Source: a virus
Length of the DNA stretch: 64,000 nt
Virus record (IMG/VR): IMGVR_UViG_3300041583_000345
Span: 1-64,000 of that record
Direction: 5' to 3' (one strand)
Shown piece by piece: positions 42,152 to 51,362 of this stretch. Every line of letters starts with the position of its first letter. The first letter of the stretch is position 1. The translations under genes were made by a program, and so were the position numbers. The notes under the pieces are model-generated. The model ran no database searches, was not told the DNA's origin, and saw only the letters and a list, made by a program, of their open reading frames with translations.

Positions 42152-42265
42152 CTAATTAAAAAGGATTCGAACCTTAATCCTGTCTCTACTTTCATTCCCG
42201 TCATCTGCTAAACACAGATCGTAAAACTACTCCTTTCTGCTGTGCACCATTACACCGTAATTAAT
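42152..42265 (-). tRNA. aberrant tRNA-like element with ~40-nt excess
   Basis: A good T arm (AAGGTTCGAATCCTT) and a Gln-like D arm (GGTGTAATGGTGCAC) lie 114 nt end to end, about 40 nt too long, and no normal anticodon arm can be drawn. AT-rich ends pair partly. Degenerate tRNA or tRNA with an insertion. Confidence 0.45.
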
Positions 42266-42313
42266 CAAAGGATTGCAATCCTCCATAGTAAAGTTAATTA
42301 CTCTTTACATTTG

Positions 42314-43096: not shown

Positions 43097-43102
43097 CTTT
43101 TG

Positions 43103-43174
43103 AGCGAATAGAGGGAATCAGACCCTCGTCCTCTGGGTGGAAGCCAGATATAATAATCACTATACTATATTCGC
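43103..43174 (-). tRNA. tRNA-Gly (TCC)
   Basis: 72 nt; acceptor GCGAATA/TATTCGC perfect; anticodon arm TCTGG-CTTCCAC-CCAGA; T loop TCTGATT. Confidence 0.87.
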
Positions 43175-43228
43175 ATTAAAAGTAAACATTGACCTCCCTC
43201 GGTGATATTATCGTTAAGCGAGGTTAAT

Positions 43229-43310
43229 TTACTTTTGAGCCTCTACAAGGAATCGAACCCTGTTCCTCCGGGTACAAACCGGGCACATTACCATTTATGC
43301 TTTAGAGGCA
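43229..43310. repeat. 82-bp direct repeat containing tRNA-Thr, copy 1
   Basis: Identical to 43501-43582. The unit is a whole tRNA-Thr with 9 extra bases on one side. Confidence 0.9.
43238..43309 (-). tRNA. tRNA-Thr (TGT), copy 1
   Basis: 72 nt; acceptor GCCTCTA/TAGAGGC; loop TTTGTAC; T arm CAGGGTTCGATTCC. Confidence 0.9.
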
Positions 43311-43500: not shown

Positions 43501-43582
43501 TTACTTTTGAGCCTCTACAAGGAATCGAACCCTGTTCCTCCGGGTACAAACCGGGCACATTACCATTTATGCTTTAGAGGCA
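43501..43582. repeat. 82-bp direct repeat containing tRNA-Thr, copy 2
   Basis: Identical to 43229-43310, 272 bases away. The 190 bases between the copies hold no gene I can recognise. Confidence 0.9.
43510..43581 (-). tRNA. tRNA-Thr (TGT), copy 2
   Basis: Identical to the copy at 43238-43309. Confidence 0.9.
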
Positions 43583-43647
43583 GTTAAGTTAGAATGGTGA
43601 TTTGAATACCTTTTAAGTTCTCCTTCGAACGTCTAACTTATATTTTG

Positions 43648-43800
43648 TAGCCCTAGTTGGAATCGAACCAACCTTTGATAAGTTACTTACTCTAATGTTT
43701 TAACTTTTCTCTTCAAACTAGTATAAGAAGTGTTAAACCAAAAGCCGTAACGTTATCCCACTGATAGTAGTAGGAGCGATCCACTACTATATATAGGACC
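43648..43800 (-). tRNA. aberrant tRNA-like element, ~153 nt
   Basis: The T arm is perfect (GTTGGTTCGATTCCAAC) and the ends can pair (GGTCCTA with TAGGGCT, two G-U). Between them lie about 75 bases too many, including a strong hairpin (TAGTAGTGG/TCCTACTA). No normal anticodon arm. Either two broken tRNAs joined or a tRNA carrying an insertion. Confidence 0.45.
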
Positions 43801-43812
43801 ATTTTAATTTTG

Positions 43813-43915
43813 TAGCTATGTTAGGATTCGAACCTAATCCGGCTTTACAATTCTAAGTGAACTTATCGTTAAACTTAACCCTGGAGAGGTGCTATCAACT
43901 AATGATTTCACAGCT
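43813..43915 (-). tRNA. aberrant tRNA-like element, 103 nt
   Basis: Ends pair (AGCTGTG with CATAGCT) and the T arm is perfect (TTAGGTTCGAATCCTAA). The D loop is very short, and an inner TAAGT/ACTTA stem resembles a long variable arm. I cannot place a convincing anticodon. Confidence 0.45.
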
Positions 43916-43924
43916 ATAATTTTG

Positions 43925-43997
43925 TACTCGTGGCAGGACTCGAACCTGCAAAAGACCGTTTCTAAGACGGCCGTGTATACCATTCCACCACACGAGC
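43925..43997 (-). tRNA. tRNA-Leu (TAG) with short variable loop
   Basis: 73 nt; anticodon arm GCCGT-CTTAGAA-ACGGT; Leu-type D arm GTGGAATGGTATACAC. The long variable arm expected of bacterial tRNA-Leu is missing. Confidence 0.85.
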
Positions 43998-44165: not shown

Positions 44166-44675
44166 CTAGAATAATAGGTAAGGTTTCCACTCTTCAGGTA
44201 TAAAACTTGTTTTCTTTAATAACATTAAGTAGTGTGGTCTTTTTGGTTTAGGTATTTCCCTACCGTATTCTTTTAATGTTAAATTTGCTTTTTCGTTATT
44301 ACAAATTTTACAAGCAGTTACTAAGTTATCCCAAGTGTTTGGTCCTCCTTTTGATTGTGGTACTACGTGATCTAATGTAAGTGTTTTTCTGTTATTACAA
44401 CCGCAGTATACGCATTCATGTCCATCTCTTTTAAATACATTATCTCTTGTTAGAGCTACTTTCTGGTATTCTAGTTTTACATAAGTGTAGACTCTAATAA
44501 CAGATGGTTTAAAAATTTCTAGTTTGGGGTTTACAACTCCAAATGTTTCGGGGTGTTCAACTACTACATCAGCATTACCTTTATACGAAATCACGAAAGC
44601 TCTTTCGGTAGTAATGATGCTTCTTGCAATGTAGCTTGAATCAACCACTAATGTTTTGTCATAACGATTTTTCAT
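44166..44675 (-). CDS. HNH endonuclease (McrA-like), homing candidate
   Basis: 169 residues. The C-terminal half has CVYCGCNNRKTLTLDHVVPQ, SKGGPNTWDNLVTACKICNN: an HNH site with two zinc Cys pairs. The N-terminal ~80 residues are beta-rich and may bind DNA. It lies alone between tRNA-Cys and tRNA-Trp, the usual place for a homing nuclease that spreads tRNA clusters. Confidence 0.85.
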   Translation of the reverse strand: MKNRYDKTLVVDSSYIARSIITTERAFVISYKGNADVVVEHPETFGVVNPKLEIFKPSVIRVYTYVKLEYQKVALTRDNVFKRDGHECVYCGCNNRKTLTLDHVVPQSKGGPNTWDNLVTACKICNNEKANLTLKEYGREIPKPKRPHYLMLLKKTSFIPEEWKPYLLF

Positions 44676-44700: not shown

Positions 44701-44769
44701 CGCAACCCCAAGGAATCGAACCTTGTCCTATAGTTTTGGAGACTATTTGGCTACCTTAGCCCGAGAAGC
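44701..44769 (-). tRNA. tRNA-Trp (CCA)
   Basis: 69 nt; anticodon arm ATAGT-CTCCAAA-ACTAT; T arm CAAGGTTCGATTCCTTG. Two U-U mismatches in the acceptor stem. Confidence 0.8.
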
Positions 44770-44928: not shown

Positions 44929-44933
44929 ATTTG

Positions 44934-45006
44934 TACCCATAGTAGGATTCGAACCTACAGCTTACAGGGCTTAAACCTGTTGTGTTTACCGTTTCACCAT
45001 ATGGGC
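44934..45006 (-). tRNA. tRNA-Leu (TAA) with short variable loop
   Basis: 73 nt; acceptor GCCCATA/TATGGGT; anticodon arm ACAGG-TTTAAGC-CCTGT. Again lacks the long variable arm. Its 5' 21 bases are also the end of the GIY-YIG gene. Confidence 0.87.
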
Positions 45007-45666
45007 ATTTTTTTTCATTTCACGAGTCTTCCTAAGACTTTCTCTTATCTTTTTTTTAGTTTCCTCACTCCTTGGTTTTCCGTATTGTGAGTTTTTATTC
45101 CCACACCCCTGTCCTATTTTAGCTTTTTTCATCTTAAGTATAGTCTCTTTCGAGTGTTTTTTTCCTAGAAAAGAGTTATGAATATGTCCGCTTTTTTTTA
45201 GACCTCTTTTTATTTTTTTAGAGATAGTGTCTTTGTCCTGCTGTGTTAGATTTTTTACCCACTCTTTTTTTGTATCTTTAAGTTTTAGTATATATGCCTC
45301 TCTCCAATCTACGTCCTGTTGTAATTTCTGTTTTCTAATCTCATTTGCACACCTAGAAGTTTCTATACTAAATCCATTTCCTCCTGTTATTAAGTTTAAG
45401 CAGTTTACACTGTTTAGATCCTGTTCTGTTATTAACTGCATTTCAGCTTGAACTAGGTCTTCTCTTGAATTAAAATACTTAATTATCTCAACCTTAAAAT
45501 TGTCTCTACCGTACTTAGTTACTTCGTAGCGTAGTCTTGTACCGCTTCCTAAATATCCGTCATCGATACGGTTAGTTGAATGCATTCCTAGGTAATATCT
45601 ACTGTTTATTATATTTGTTGTTTTATAAGTAAAGTGGTATTTCTTCTTTTTTGAATAGTTAGCCAT
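44986..45666 (-). CDS. GIY-YIG homing endonuclease with NUMOD3 motifs
   Basis: 226 residues. The GIY-YIG-like core reads FTYKTTNIINSRYYLGMHST and YLGSGTRLRYEVTKYGRDNF, then FNSREDLVQAEMQLITEQDL with the catalytic Glu. The C-terminus has repeated DNA-binding NUMOD3 segments (FLGKKHSKETILKMKKAKIG and YGKPRSEETKKKIRESL). Its last codons run into tRNA-Leu(TAA), so insertion or drift has fused the two ends. Confidence 0.87.
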   Translation of the reverse strand: MANYSKKKKYHFTYKTTNIINSRYYLGMHSTNRIDDGYLGSGTRLRYEVTKYGRDNFKVEIIKYFNSREDLVQAEMQLITEQDLNSVNCLNLITGGNGFSIETSRCANEIRKQKLQQDVDWREAYILKLKDTKKEWVKNLTQQDKDTISKKIKRGLKKSGHIHNSFLGKKHSKETILKMKKAKIGQGCGNKNSQYGKPRSEETKKKIRESLRKTREMKKNAHMVKR

Positions 45667-45983: not shown

Positions 45984-46069
45984 AGGAAGAAATCGGAATC
46001 GAACCGAATGCCTTTTACAGCACGATTATCTTAGCAGGATACCCTAATCACCATCATAGTTTATCTTCC
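45984..46069 (-). tRNA. tRNA-Ser (GCT), class II
   Basis: 86 nt; acceptor GGAAGAT/TTCTTCC; anticodon loop CTGCTAA; variable arm GTGC/GCAT; T arm TCGGTTCGATTCCGA. Confidence 0.85.
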
Positions 46070-46442: not shown

Positions 46443-46523
46443 GTTACGATTAAAGGACTCGAACCTTCATTGGGTATATCTACCGGTACTGCCAATGGAA
46501 CAGTCAACGCACCTGCATCGTAA
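46443..46523 (-). tRNA. tRNA-like element with 18-nt anticodon loop
   Basis: 81 nt. Acceptor TTACGAT/ATCGTAA is perfect, the T arm is normal (AAGGTTCGAGTCCTT), and ATTGG/CCAAT form a 5-bp anticodon stem. The loop has 18 bases (with the palindrome TACCGGTA) instead of 7, so no anticodon can be assigned. Consistent with an 11-nt insertion. Confidence 0.6.
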
Positions 46524-46531
46524 TATGATGG

Positions 46532-46604: not shown

Positions 46605-46750
46605 ATATCCCTTCGTTGCTACTTACACTTTCTAGCTAGTGTGCTTTCACCCTTTCCCGTTTATTTTATATCGTCGTACTAATGGGGCTTACGCCACGAT
46701 ATTGGTTTGGCTTTTTTCCTGTTTCTTTCTTTCAGTAGCCTTCTGCCCGG

Positions 46751-46831
46751 TGGGGCAAGGTGGATTCGAACCACTCCCTTGCGGACGAGATTTACAGTCT
46801 CGCTGCCGTATCCGAACGACTTTCTCTCCCC
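46751..46831 (-). tRNA. tRNA-Tyr (GTA)
   Basis: 81 nt, class II; anticodon arm CGAGA-CTGTAAA-TCTCG; short variable arm; T arm GTGGTTCGAATCCAC. Confidence 0.9.
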
Positions 46832-46835
46832 TTTG

Positions 46836-46925
46836 ATTTTGTAATAGGACTTGAACCTATACGAAGACCTTGCGGTTACTTCAACCCTTGGAATGGGTCG
46901 TGTATCCCAATTTCACCACACAAAA
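46836..46925 (-). tRNA. class II tRNA with TCC anticodon
   Basis: 90 nt. Acceptor TTTTGTG/TACAAAA, a Leu-type D arm (GGTGAAATTGGGATACAC), a long variable arm (GAAG/CTTC) and T arm ATAGGTTCAAGTCCTAT. The anticodon arm ACCC-ATTCCAA-GGGT gives TCC, normally Gly, although the body is Leu- or Ser-like. A normal Gly(TCC) tRNA exists at 43103. Confidence 0.7.
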
Positions 46926-47024
46926 CAACTATCTTTAAGAAGACTGTAATCTCCAAATAAATAGACTAGTAAATGCAATTAACGATATTACAGTACCGTA
47001 TTTATATACACCCAACTAATTTTG

Positions 47025-47095
47025 TACCTCGTAGTGGAATCGAACCACTGCCAATTGCATGTAAAACAATTACGCTTCCATTACGCCAACGAGGC
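47025..47095 (-). tRNA. tRNA-Val (TAC)
   Basis: 71 nt; acceptor GCCTCGT/ACGAGGT; anticodon arm ATTGT-TTTACAT-GCAAT; T arm GTGGTTCGATTCCAC. Confidence 0.92.
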
Positions 47096-47357: not shown

Positions 47358-47360
47358 TAT

Positions 47361-47426
47361 TAATCTACTTTTACCCTGGCTATATATGGCATTTCATATC
47401 TTTTACCCAGGCTATTTTGTAGATTA
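47361..47426. repeat. 66-nt spacer element forming a long hairpin
   Basis: Perfect 8-bp ends (TAATCTAC/GTAGATTA) enclose nested CCTGG/CCAGG and ATATG/CATAT stems, making one long rod. It contains two near-identical GGGTAAAAG segments. It fills the spacer between tRNA-Pro and tRNA-Gln. Confidence 0.65.
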
Positions 47427-47428
47427 TG

Positions 47429-47500: not shown

Positions 47501-47504
47501 ATTT

Positions 47505-47596
47505 AAAAACTACTTACACCTAATAAAGAAATCTCATCTTTTCTTCGCCCAGGGACGAATTAGTTTCATTGACTTAGGCGAATTACAGTAGTTTTT
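47505..47596. repeat. 92-nt spacer element with perfect 10-bp inverted ends
   Basis: AAAAACTACT and AGTAGTTTTT bound the spacer between tRNA-Gln and tRNA-Ser almost exactly. The interior has another TTCGCC/GGCGAA pair. Confidence 0.65.
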
Positions 47597-47598
47597 TG

Positions 47599-48252: not shown

Positions 48253-48780
48253 TTATATAGTAATTTTACCTTTCACACCAGGTACCATTTGTTTAATTTG
48301 TTCTTTAGAGTATTTTTTAGAAATGGGGGTGTTTTTTAAATAAAGATCACCTACTACTGTTAAATCTTGGGGGAGGGAGGTTATTGGGGTATTATTTAAA
48401 TAAAGATAACCTACTACTGTTAAACCTTGGGGGAGGGAGGTTATTGGAGTATTTTCTAAATCAAGAGAACCCCCTACTGTTAAGTCTTTAGGTAATGCGG
48501 TGATAGGAGTATATGATAAATAAAGATAACCTCCTACTGTTAAACCTTGAGGTAGCGAGGTGATTTTGCTCCCATATAAATCAAGATTACCTTTTACTTT
48601 TAAATCTTGAGGTAGGGAGGTTATTGGTGTACCTGCTAAATCAAGATCATTTTTACCCCCATCCTTCATATATTGTTGGATTTTCTTTTGCGTAGCAATT
48701 AAAAAGTTCTTAGTACGTTCTTCAGGGGAACGTCTAGGGACTAATATTTTATTTTCTAATATGTCTATTAATTTTATCAT
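48253..48780 (-). CDS. leucine-rich-like repeat protein A (175 aa)
   Basis: A conserved head (MIKLIDILENKILVPRRSPE) and a helix (IATQKKIQQYMKDGG) precede five or so 20-residue repeats of the type ITSLPQGLTVGGYLDLxNTP, then a common tail (SKEQIKQMVPGVKG). Repeats with L-P-x-x-L and L-x-L should stack as a short solenoid. One of four paralogs; function unknown, probably binding. Confidence 0.8.
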   Translation of the reverse strand: MIKLIDILENKILVPRRSPEERTKNFLIATQKKIQQYMKDGGKNDLDLAGTPITSLPQDLKVKGNLDLYGSKITSLPQGLTVGGYLYLSYTPITALPKDLTVGGSLDLENTPITSLPQGLTVVGYLYLNNTPITSLPQDLTVVGDLYLKNTPISKKYSKEQIKQMVPGVKGKITI

Positions 48781-49247
48781 TATATAATAATTTCACCTTT
48801 CACACCAGGTACCATTTGTCTAATTTGTTCTTCATTATATTTTTTAGAGATGGGGGTATTTCTTAAATAAAGATTACGTCCTACTGTTAAACCTTGGGGG
48901 AGGGAGGTTATTTTAGTATTTCTTAAATCAAGATCATCTCCTACTGTTAAACCTTGTGGTAGGGAGGTTATTGGGGTACTATTTAAATTAAGATAACCCC
49001 CTACTGTTAAACCTTGAGGTAGGGAGGTTATTTTGCTCCCATATAAATAAAGAGAACCTCCTACTGTTAATCCTTGGGGGAGGGTGGTTATTGGTGTTCT
49101 TCCTAAATTAAGATCACCTTTACTTCCATCCTTCATGTATTGTTGGATCTTCTTTTGGGTAGCAATTATATAATTCTTAGAGCGTTCCTCAGGGGAGCGT
49201 CTAGGGACTAGTATTTTATTTTCTAATAGATCTATTAGTTTTATCAT
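48780..49247 (-). CDS. leucine-rich-like repeat protein B (155 aa)
   Basis: Same head, repeat type and tail as protein A but one unit shorter. Its stop overlaps the next ATG by one base. Several repeats are nearly identical in DNA to those of the neighbours, a sign of recent repeat exchange. Confidence 0.8.
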   Translation of the reverse strand: MIKLIDLLENKILVPRRSPEERSKNYIIATQKKIQQYMKDGSKGDLNLGRTPITTLPQGLTVGGSLYLYGSKITSLPQGLTVGGYLNLNSTPITSLPQGLTVGDDLDLRNTKITSLPQGLTVGRNLYLRNTPISKKYNEEQIRQMVPGVKGEIII

Positions 49248-49954
49248 TGTATATAAATTTCACCTTTTACTCCCGGTACCATTTGTTTAATTTGTTCTTT
49301 AGAGTATTTTTTAGAGATGGGGGTATCTCTTAAATCAAGATTACGTCCTACTTTTAAATTTTGAGGTAGGGTGGTTATTGGGGTATTAGTTAAATAAATA
49401 TTACTTCCTACTGTTAAACCTCGGGGTAATGAGGTTATTGGAGTATTCTGTAAATCAAGATAACCTCCTACTGTAAAACCTTGGGGTAGGGAGGTTATTA
49501 GAGTATACCTTAAACTAAGAGAACCTCCTACTGTTAAACCCTGTGGTAGGGAGGTTATTGGGGTACTATTTAAATTAAGATAACCTCCTACTGTTAAACC
49601 TTGGGGGAGGGAGGTTATTGGGGTATCTCTTAAATCAAGAGAACCTCCTACTTTTAAACCTTGAGGTAGGGAGGTTATTTTAGTCCCATGTAAATCAAGA
49701 AAACCTCCTACTGTTAAACCTTGAGGTAGGGAGGTTATTTTAGTATAAGATAAATCAAGATAACTTCCTACTGTTAAGCCTTGGGGTAGGGAGGTTATTG
49801 GGGTATTTTTTAAATCAAGATCACCTTTACTCCCATCCTTCATGTATTGTTGGATCTTCTTTTGGGTAGCAATTATATAATTCTTAGAACGTTCTTCTTT
49901 GGAACGTCTAGGGACTAGGATTTTATTTTCTAATATGTCTAATAGTTTAATCAT
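49244..49954 (-). CDS. leucine-rich-like repeat protein C (236 aa)
   Basis: The longest paralog with about nine repeats. Each unit carries Pro at the same place (SLPQGL) and often a second in NTPI. Overlaps protein B by 4 bases and meets the non-repeat gene upstream at one base. Confidence 0.8.
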   Translation of the reverse strand: MIKLLDILENKILVPRRSKEERSKNYIIATQKKIQQYMKDGSKGDLDLKNTPITSLPQGLTVGSYLDLSYTKITSLPQGLTVGGFLDLHGTKITSLPQGLKVGGSLDLRDTPITSLPQGLTVGGYLNLNSTPITSLPQGLTVGGSLSLRYTLITSLPQGFTVGGYLDLQNTPITSLPRGLTVGSNIYLTNTPITTLPQNLKVGRNLDLRDTPISKKYSKEQIKQMVPGVKGEIYIQ

Positions 49955-50703
49955 TATGAAATTCCTATTATATTAGTATATTCTTTTATATCGTTAGATG
50001 AAATTTGTTTATCTAACCCATCATACCCATCAATTTTCCCATTATCTAATACCGCCAAAGCAACAACTACTAAATTCTTCCAAGTTTTTGGAAATTTATC
50101 TTTAAGTTGATTTATCATTTGCTGTGACTTTACTTTAACATAGTAAAAAGTTACATTATTTGTATAGTAATAATCATTAAAGTGATCGGGGGCTTTGTAT
50201 GTTGTACACCATGAAGAATCTTTTCCACCATCCCCACAGTCTCTAAATGCAAATTGGGATAATCCAAGTTTACGAGATGCTTCGTGGGTGTGGGGGGACA
50301 TTATTAATAGGTCTGAATTCTCTAATACAGTATCGTAGTCGGATTCTAGATCTCTGGTAGATATATTTTCTCCTGAGTTGTTAATTTGGTCAACTTCATC
50401 TTGAAGGGCTTTAAAGGATTTAATTTGGTAAATATCTTTGGTTTTTGTTTTACCTTTTTCTGAGAGTGTATTGAACTCTTCAATGGTGTTTCTTAAATCA
50501 TCTATATCTGTAATTTGTTTTTCTGCCCATTGTTTTGCCATCCACCCTACATACTTACGTGTTGGGGAAGGGTCTATATCAGTTAATATTTTTAACTCCT
50601 CTTGGGTTAGTTTACCGGATTCAACATATTGTTTTGCCTGTCTTATGTTTTCTAATATTGAATGTTTATTTTCAATTAAGAGTTTTGAATAATTAAATTT
50701 CAT
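49954..50703 (-). CDS. hypothetical protein within the repeat cluster
   Basis: 249 residues. A helical N-terminus (ILENIRQAKQYVESGKLTQE) with an I-D-P-S-P-T-R-K-Y segment, then RDCGDGGKDSSWCTTYKAPD and HFNDYYYTNNVTFYYVKVKS, a block that recurs in large marine phages next to similar repeats. Function unknown. It interrupts the series of repeat paralogs. Confidence 0.65.
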   Translation of the reverse strand: MKFNYSKLLIENKHSILENIRQAKQYVESGKLTQEELKILTDIDPSPTRKYVGWMAKQWAEKQITDIDDLRNTIEEFNTLSEKGKTKTKDIYQIKSFKALQDEVDQINNSGENISTRDLESDYDTVLENSDLLIMSPHTHEASRKLGLSQFAFRDCGDGGKDSSWCTTYKAPDHFNDYYYTNNVTFYYVKVKSQQMINQLKDKFPKTWKNLVVVALAVLDNGKIDGYDGLDKQISSNDIKEYTNIIGIS

Positions 50704-50714
50704 ATTGTTGTGTT

Positions 50715-51362
50715 TTATATATAAATATTACCTTTAACATCAGGTACCATTTGTTTGATTTGTTCTTTACTATATTTTTTAGAGATGGGGGTCTTACTTA
50801 AATAAAGATAACCTCCTACTTTTAAATCTTGAGGTAGGGTGGTTATTGAGATATTTCTTAAATAAAGATCATCTCCTACTGTTAAACCTTGGGGTAGGGA
50901 GGTTATTAGAGTATTTTCTAAATCAAGAGAACCTCCTACTGTTAAACCTTGGGGTAGTGAGGTTATTGGAGTGTTTTTTAAATAAAGACTATCTCCTACT
51001 GTTAAACCTTGGGGGAGGGAGGTTATTTTAATCCCATGTAAATCAAGATAACCCCCTACTTTTAAATCTTGAGGGAGGGAGGTTATTGGGGTATCTCTTA
51101 AATTAAGGGCACCTCCTACTGTTAAGCCTTGGGGTAGGGAGGTTATTTTAGTATTTCTTAAATCAAGATAACCTCCTACTGTTAAACCTTGAGGGAGGGA
51201 GGTTATTGGGGTATTATCTAAATAAAGATTACCTTTACTCCCATCCTTCATATATTGTTGAATTTTCTTTTGCGTAGCAATTAAAAAGTTCTTAGAGCGT
51301 TCTTCTTTGGAACGTCTAGGGACTAAAATTTTATTTTCTAAGAGATCTATTAGTTTTATCAT
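50715..51362 (-). CDS. leucine-rich-like repeat protein D (215 aa)
   Basis: First gene of the cluster. Head MIKLIDLLENKILVPRRSKE, about eight repeats and the common tail ending VPDVKGNIYI. No promoter motif of the common type is seen just upstream. Confidence 0.8.
   Translation of the reverse strand: MIKLIDLLENKILVPRRSKEERSKNFLIATQKKIQQYMKDGSKGNLYLDNTPITSLPQGLTVGGYLDLRNTKITSLPQGLTVGGALNLRDTPITSLPQDLKVGGYLDLHGIKITSLPQGLTVGDSLYLKNTPITSLPQGLTVGGSLDLENTLITSLPQGLTVGDDLYLRNISITTLPQDLKVGGYLYLSKTPISKKYSKEQIKQMVPDVKGNIYI

What the first reader, a model, noticed from the sequence alone, without database searches (positions are those of the whole stretch)
46836..46925. Class II tRNA with a glycine (UCC) anticodon on a Leu/Ser-type body
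This 90-nt tRNA has a Leu-type D arm and a long variable arm, yet the loop ATTCCAA puts UCC at the anticodon. Bacterial LeuRS and SerRS largely ignore the anticodon, so this tRNA could put Leu or Ser at GGA codons, or it may act outside translation.
Basis: partly seen in the sequence, partly recalled or inferred. Interest (0 to 1): 0.6.

Follow-up and report, generated by a model that had tools for sequence, protein, structure and literature searches.

The report
tRNA-like half of a phage RNA
What looks like a leucine-type tRNA with a glycine anticodon in a Flavobacterium-type phage is most likely not a misreading tRNA but the tRNA-shaped half of a conserved structured RNA module whose 'anticodon' differs from phage to phage, often in forms that could not read codons.

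Summary
In detail: complement(46835..46925) folds as a 91-nt class II cloverleaf with a Leu-like D arm, long variable arm and UCC. Reading it as a Leu/Ser tRNA that misreads GGA does not hold up. The phage already covers all 20 amino acids, including a normal tRNA-Gly(UCC), and GGA is its commonest Gly codon. The tRNA has U73, not the Leu A73 or Ser G73. In the two nearest relatives the orthologue has UCU. In more distant relatives the tRNA in the same slot has AUG, UGG, CGA, UGA or no readable anticodon, mostly on G33/A33 pentaloops. In every case where it was read, a 98-100-nt leader directly precedes it, carrying two hairpins with complementary hexaloops (CUGUAA/UUACAG here; CGGCAA/UUGCCG, CUACAA/UUGUAG, CUGCAA/UUGCAG elsewhere). 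Leader helices covary strongly. The kissing signature precedes 10 slot tRNAs and only 1 of about 520 others. I conclude it is a non-decoding tRNA-like domain of a roughly 190-nt phage RNA module absent from Rfam. What the RNA does (tRNA mimic or decoy, or processing handle for the leader) is inferred, not shown. Expression is untested.

The parts
46835..46925 (-). class II tRNA-like domain (the finding), 91 nt, U73, no encoded CCA
   Evidence: orthologue with UCU in L016 and L042
46890..46892 (-). 'anticodon' UCC; UCU in L016 and L042
46926..47023 (-). 98-nt structured leader that exactly fills the gap between tRNA-Val and the tRNA-like domain
   Evidence: R1 model trained without this sequence gives its only window hit here, 46927-47023, 19.8 bits, E 0.12; 99-100% identical in L016 and L042
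46982..46999 (-). leader hairpin H1, stem ACGGUA/UAUCGU, hexaloop CUGUAA (46988-46993)
46939..46954 (-). leader hairpin H3, stem GGAGA/UCUUC, hexaloop UUACAG (46944-46949), complementary to the H1 loop
   Evidence: 6 of 20000 shuffles; 0 of 2610 window tiles
47024..47095 (-). tRNA-Val(UAC), constant upstream neighbour of the module
46749..46831 (-). tRNA-Tyr(GUA), usual downstream neighbour
43102..43174 (-). ordinary class I tRNA-Gly(UCC) of the same array (G1-C72, C2-G71, G3-C70, U73)

Best explanation
The feature is the tRNA-like 3' domain of an approximately 190-nt phage RNA module. The 5' part is a 98-nt leader built on two hairpins whose six-base loops are complementary and can kiss. Proposed working: the module is transcribed with the tRNA array (inferred). 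The host's tRNA maturation enzymes cut at the 3' end of tRNA-Val and at both ends of the tRNA-like domain, so the cloverleaf acts as a handle that shapes, protects and releases the RNA and lets it be bound by tRNA-recognising proteins (inferred). The anticodon loop is not used to read codons, so it drifts or diversifies between phages (the variation is shown by comparison; the lack of decoding is inferred). The most likely use of such a mimic in a phage is as a decoy or antagonist of a host tRNA-directed factor such as a defence nuclease, possibly one that also threatens the neighbouring tRNA-Tyr (inference only, about 0.25).
For: Syntenic orthologue has UCU in L016 and L042. Slot relatives carry loops AAUGA, GUGGA, GUGAA, GCGAA and others with A33 or G33; 389 of 401 distinct tRNAs in these arrays have U33, and 6 of the 12 exceptions are in this slot. 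Leader covariation: 90.4% of cells paired against 32-40% for slid controls, 17 of 28 pairs changed on both sides, no shuffle reaches it, kissing helix 100% paired with 2 covarying pairs. The window leader, not used in training, is the model's only window hit and has the kissing loops at matching positions. Leader and tRNA-like body co-occur with fixed spacing whichever of the two is used as bait. The kissing signature precedes 10 slot tRNAs and 1 of the other roughly 520. Val, leader and tRNA-like are 96-100% identical to L042 (Tyr 88%), while other alignable tRNAs are mostly 53-71% (two Met 64-84%).
Against: The window's own copy keeps U33, purine 37/38 and full tertiary contacts, so it could still decode. 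The leader model scores only 19.8 bits here (E 0.12 per 64 kb), and unrelated records give 19.5-19.6 bits, so family membership rests on position, synteny and the kissing loops together. The window trio's class II body is not obviously homologous to the class I tRNA-like bodies of the other phages; it may be a different tRNA placed behind the same leader. Helix H2 of the leader is poorly kept in the window. No expression, binding or phenotype data exist.
Confidence: 0.7

Rival explanations
1. One reading: a Leu- or Ser-charged tRNA that misreads GGA (adaptive or accidental mistranslation).
For: Class II body with Leu-like D loop including A20a; LeuRS ignores the anticodon. Nematode nev-tRNA-Gly(CCC) of this design is charged with Leu in vitro (PMC4300185). 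Other class II Leu-type UCC tRNAs with A73 exist elsewhere: L007 and L034.
Against: U73 instead of A73 or G73, U1-A72 and U2-A71, no C11-G24. Anticodon UCU in relatives would hit AGA, the commonest Arg codon (239 of 347 Arg codons counted). GGA is the commonest Gly codon. Most slot relatives lack U33.
Confidence: 0.1
2. A true second glycine tRNA with an unusual class II body, charged by GlyRS.
For: U73, C35 and C36 are bacterial Gly determinants (PMC9976931).
Against: Lacks G1-C72, C2-G71 and G3-C70; C36 is U in the orthologues; the phage already has a normal tRNA-Gly(UCC).
Confidence: 0.05
3. A decaying tRNA pseudogene left in a shuffling array.
For: Arrays are mosaic and some phages lack the slot entirely; the anticodon changed by point mutation; some neighbouring tRNAs have weak stems too.
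Against: Acceptor pairing is kept (G7.U66 versus G7-C66), every arm is intact, the leader is nearly invariant in the trio and covaries in the wider family, and the slot always pairs the leader with a cloverleaf.
Confidence: 0.1
4. The leader is the functional RNA and the cloverleaf is only a processing mark that lets RNase P cut its 3' end; the anticodon is irrelevant. A narrower version of the best explanation.
For: The leader exactly fills the space between tRNA-Val and the tRNA-like domain (98-100 nt in all); the anticodon is free to vary.
Against: An ordinary tRNA would serve as well, and ordinary tRNAs follow structured spacers elsewhere in these arrays; it does not explain why non-decoding bodies were fixed so often.
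Confidence: 0.2

Closest known systems
nev-tRNA-Gly(CCC)/Ile(UAU) of nematodes (PMC4300185)
   Same: class II Leu-like body with a non-Leu anticodon, in organisms that also have ordinary tRNAs for those amino acids
   Different: eukaryotic, charged with Leu in vitro, no leader module; here U73 and an anticodon that varies between orthologues
Bacillus cereus tRNA-Other pseudo-tRNA (PMC3399842)
   Same: a tRNA-shaped element not used in translation, reported within larger transcripts
   Different: chromosomal, single case, no kissing-loop leader described, reported role in host regulation
phage tRNAs that evade tRNA-targeting defence (PMC10264068, PMC11555353, PMC13096335)
   Same: phage tRNA array; anticodon-loop changes and supply of tRNA-Tyr counter nucleases
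   Different: those replace or resist as working tRNAs; a non-decoding mimic is not described in the abstracts and passages I read
bacterial Y RNA (YrlA) and tmRNA
   Same: larger RNAs with a tRNA-like part (own knowledge)
   Different: no Rfam match to the leader among 4227 families at E up to 5; no tag reading frame seen
ROOL and GOLLD ornate RNAs (PMC12286853)
   Same: phage- or tRNA-associated structured RNAs (own knowledge)
   Different: hundreds of nucleotides; no Rfam match here

Membership tests
class II tRNA (cloverleaf) | 7-bp acceptor, D, anticodon, long variable and T arms; G18G19; TTC in T loop | tested here: met
decoding tRNA | anticodon conserved among orthologues | tested here: not met
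   UCC here, UCU in L016 and L042, others in the slot
decoding tRNA | U33 in the anticodon loop | tested here: inconclusive
   present in the window trio, absent in at least 6 slot relatives
tRNA-Leu (bacterial) | A73 | tested here: not met
   U73; determinant list
tRNA-Ser (bacterial) | G73, C72, G2-C71 | tested here: not met
   U73, A72, U2-A71; but the phage's own tRNA-Ser(UGA) also has U73
tRNA-Gly (bacterial) | U73, G1-C72, C2-G71, G3-C70, C35, C36 | tested here: not met
   U73, C35, C36 met; the three acceptor pairs not met
kissing-leader plus tRNA-like module (defined here) | about 100-nt leader with two hairpins of complementary hexaloops, directly before a cloverleaf, after tRNA-Val | tested here: met
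kissing-leader plus tRNA-like module (defined here) | leader covariance model score above noise | tested here: inconclusive
   19.8 bits, E 0.12 in 64 kb; noise reaches 19.6 bits
any Rfam 15 family (tmRNA, Y RNA and others) | match to the curated model over the leader | tested here: not met
mistranslating tRNA (nev-tRNA-like) | charged with a non-cognate amino acid | not testable with these tools
   needs acylation assay

The most novel reading that the evidence does not exclude
A previously undescribed family of phage RNAs joins a kissing-loop leader to a tRNA-like domain with a free or GNNRA-type 'anticodon' loop. It moves as a cassette through tRNA arrays of Flavobacterium-type phages and acts as tRNA mimics against host tRNA-targeting factors. 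A second leader and tRNA-like family in the same arrays, present in cultured phage immuto, would make this a general strategy.
Probability: 0.35. Interest if true: 0.8.

Novelty: new variant of a known kind. Interest (0 to 1): 0.6.

Why it matters
Phage tRNA arrays are usually read as codon supply or as defence-proof tRNAs. A module whose tRNA-shaped part cannot or need not decode would mean that some annotated phage tRNAs are structured RNAs in disguise, and that anticodon-based annotation misleads. A related module sits in a cultured phage (immuto on Flavobacterium sp. LMO8), so the idea can be tested.

Tried and rejected
Misdecoding as main function: rejected on U73, orthologue UCU, codon use and slot relatives. 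Alternative register giving tRNA-Trp(CCA) or Leu(CAA): stems do not pair, and a separate tRNA-Trp exists at c(44701..44769). Pairing of the anticodon loop with the leader (UCCAA with UUGGA): present in the trio but not seen in the relatives I inspected, so dropped. Genome-wide pattern scan for class II Leu-type UCC tRNAs: most hits are coding sequence (Rhodoferax and relatives) or look like interrupted tRNA-Leu genes; L023, L026 and L034 look genuine and isolated. L105 hit of the leader model (E 0.0065): no array context, judged chance. Whole-record scans with the leader model: only noise-level hits. MAFFT alignment A2 of the tRNA-like bodies misplaces the anticodon arm, so arms were compared one by one.

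Full report
What is there. The window is part of a 121,930-base IMG/VR virus record. By its ribonucleotide reductase its nearest cultured relative is Flavobacterium phage immuto (84% identity). From 41.9 to 47.7 kb it carries a tRNA array on the minus strand: 25 tRNAs by ARAGORN, plus tRNA-Trp(CCA) at c(44701..44769) found by Rfam and a probable tRNA-Ser(GCU) at c(45985..46069) seen as a weak tRNA-Sec match and read by hand. All twenty amino acids are covered without the finding, and a normal tRNA-Gly(UCC) lies at c(43102..43174).

The element. Complement(46835..46925) folds as a class II cloverleaf with all arms, UCC in a seven-base loop, a Leu-like D loop, and U73. The Rfam tRNA score is marginal, 30.8 bits. 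Against published determinants (PMC9976931) it has no complete set: Leu needs A73; Ser has G73, C72 and G2-C71; Gly needs U73, C35 and C36 (met) plus G1-C72, C2-G71 and G3-C70 (not met).

Orthologues. A protein next to the array found two records with a 97% identical gene and the same array (L016, L017). Further relatives came from other proteins and from a tRNA-Val pattern. At the same place, between tRNA-Val and tRNA-Tyr, L016 and L042 carry the same 91-nt body with UCU. L042 is the more distant and shares UCU, so by parsimony UCC is a recent point change. More distant arrays have class I-sized tRNA-like bodies in the slot, with arms closed by pentaloops or other loops (AAUGA, GUGGA, GUGAA, GCGAA, a six-base loop and others) and usually no U33. 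In a census of 401 distinct tRNAs of these arrays, 389 have U33; six of the twelve exceptions are in this slot. Other arrays lack the module altogether.

The leader. In every slot member where it was read, a 98-100-nt stretch fills the space between tRNA-Val and the body. I aligned 11 leaders, leaving out the window trio, and tested a structure of three hairpins plus a kissing helix between the loops of the first and third: 90.4% of cells pair, 32-40% when slid; 17 of 28 pairs change on both sides; no shuffle of 500 reaches the observed values; the kissing helix pairs in all sequences and covaries at two pairs. The structure was drawn from one of these sequences, which favours it somewhat; the kissing pairs and H1 covariation carry the argument. 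The covariance model from these 11 has one hit in the window, full length, 46927-47023, E 0.12. That score alone is weak, since other records give 19.5-19.6 bits by chance. But the hit abuts the finding, and the window leader independently has two hairpins with perfectly complementary hexaloops, CUGUAA at 31 and UUACAG at 75, against CGGCAA at 29 and UUGCCG at 76 in L143. Six of 20,000 dinucleotide shuffles and none of 2,610 window tiles show such a pair. Screening the upstream 105 bases of 531 distinct tRNAs, 11 show kissing hexaloops: ten are this slot, one is an AT-only chance pair.

Linkage. A leader pattern and a body pattern, each used alone over the whole viral collection, recover the same phages, with a fixed spacing of 52 or 53 bases between motifs in all 12 loci that hold both; the leader pattern's only other hits are two records without an array (L167, L168). 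Between the window and L042, tRNA-Val and the leader are identical, the tRNA-like domain is 96% and tRNA-Tyr 88% identical, while most other alignable tRNAs are 53-71% (two Met comparisons 64-84%). The cassette is thus conserved or exchanged as a unit.

Why not misdecoding. GGA is 298 of 603 Gly codons and AGA 239 of 347 counted Arg codons in 27 window genes. A Leu- or Ser-charged UCC or UCU tRNA would compete at the commonest codons of the phage. The precedent that looks closest, nematode nev-tRNAs, is Leu-charged in vitro but was not detected to misincorporate in the proteome (PMC4300185). Bacillus cereus tRNA-Other is a precedent for a tRNA-like element in a larger RNA (PMC3399842).

Mechanism. 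Shown: cloverleaf, variable anticodon, linked leader, covarying kissing hairpins. Inferred: co-transcription with the array, maturation by host RNase P and RNase Z, lack of decoding, and a mimic or decoy role. Phage tRNAs that counter tRNA-cutting defences are documented (PMC10264068, PMC11555353, PMC13096335), which makes a decoy plausible but does not prove it.

Limits. The window copy is still able to decode by its loop. Whether its class II body shares descent with the class I bodies behind the same leader is not settled. Weak stems occur in other tRNAs of this array (Trp, Ser-GCU), so the short anticodon stem is not strong evidence. The sample is some 14 distinct modules, three of them near-identical.

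Noticed in passing
L169:20246-20331 (MW353175), also L065, L114, L152, L162: A second module family: tRNA-like body AATCGGTTRGTGTAAT...ACCGATTCC (annotated 'tRNA-Cys' in immuto) behind a different conserved leader (GGGTTTATAG...AAACCCTGAAAGACCAAGGTTGGTAAAAAAG) at the start of the array.
   Followed up: partly
window 42153-42267 (-), 46444-46524 (-), and the 43582-43923 spacer: Further unannotated tRNA-like stretches with T arm and acceptor but expanded or odd middle parts between tRNA genes.
   Followed up: partly
window 47501-47597, 47358-47427, 43175-43236: Several inter-tRNA spacers fold better than shuffles (z about -3 to -4.6) as closed hairpins; similar spacer elements recur before different tRNAs in other phages.
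   Followed up: no
window 43924-43997 and 44933-45006 (-): Both tRNA-Leu genes (UAG, UAA) have short class I variable loops, unusual for bacterial tRNA-Leu.
   Followed up: no
L043 5847-6008 (-) / L170 (Arthrobacter phage Amigo): Annotated tRNA-Val(gac) is a class II Leu-like body with C33, or 6 bp plus pentaloop CGACA; the adjacent 'tRNA-Gly(ccc)' is also irregular; 15 Arthrobacter phage records hold the region.
   Followed up: partly
L007:3449-3534, L034, L023, L026: Isolated class II Leu-type tRNAs with UCC, A73 in L007 and L034: better candidates for true Leu-at-GGA tRNAs than the window one.
   Followed up: partly
window 47729, 47921, 44038 (-): The 15-mer TAGTTCGTATATTTA occurs three times on the minus strand, twice just upstream of the array and once inside it: possible phage promoter.
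   Followed up: no
window 44166-44675 and 44986-45666 (-): HNH-like and GIY-YIG-like endonuclease reading frames (by eye) sit inside the tRNA array.
   Followed up: no
window 48253-51362 (-): Tandem paralogous genes with leucine-rich-type repeats (TPITSLPQGLTVGGSLDL) next to the array.
   Followed up: no
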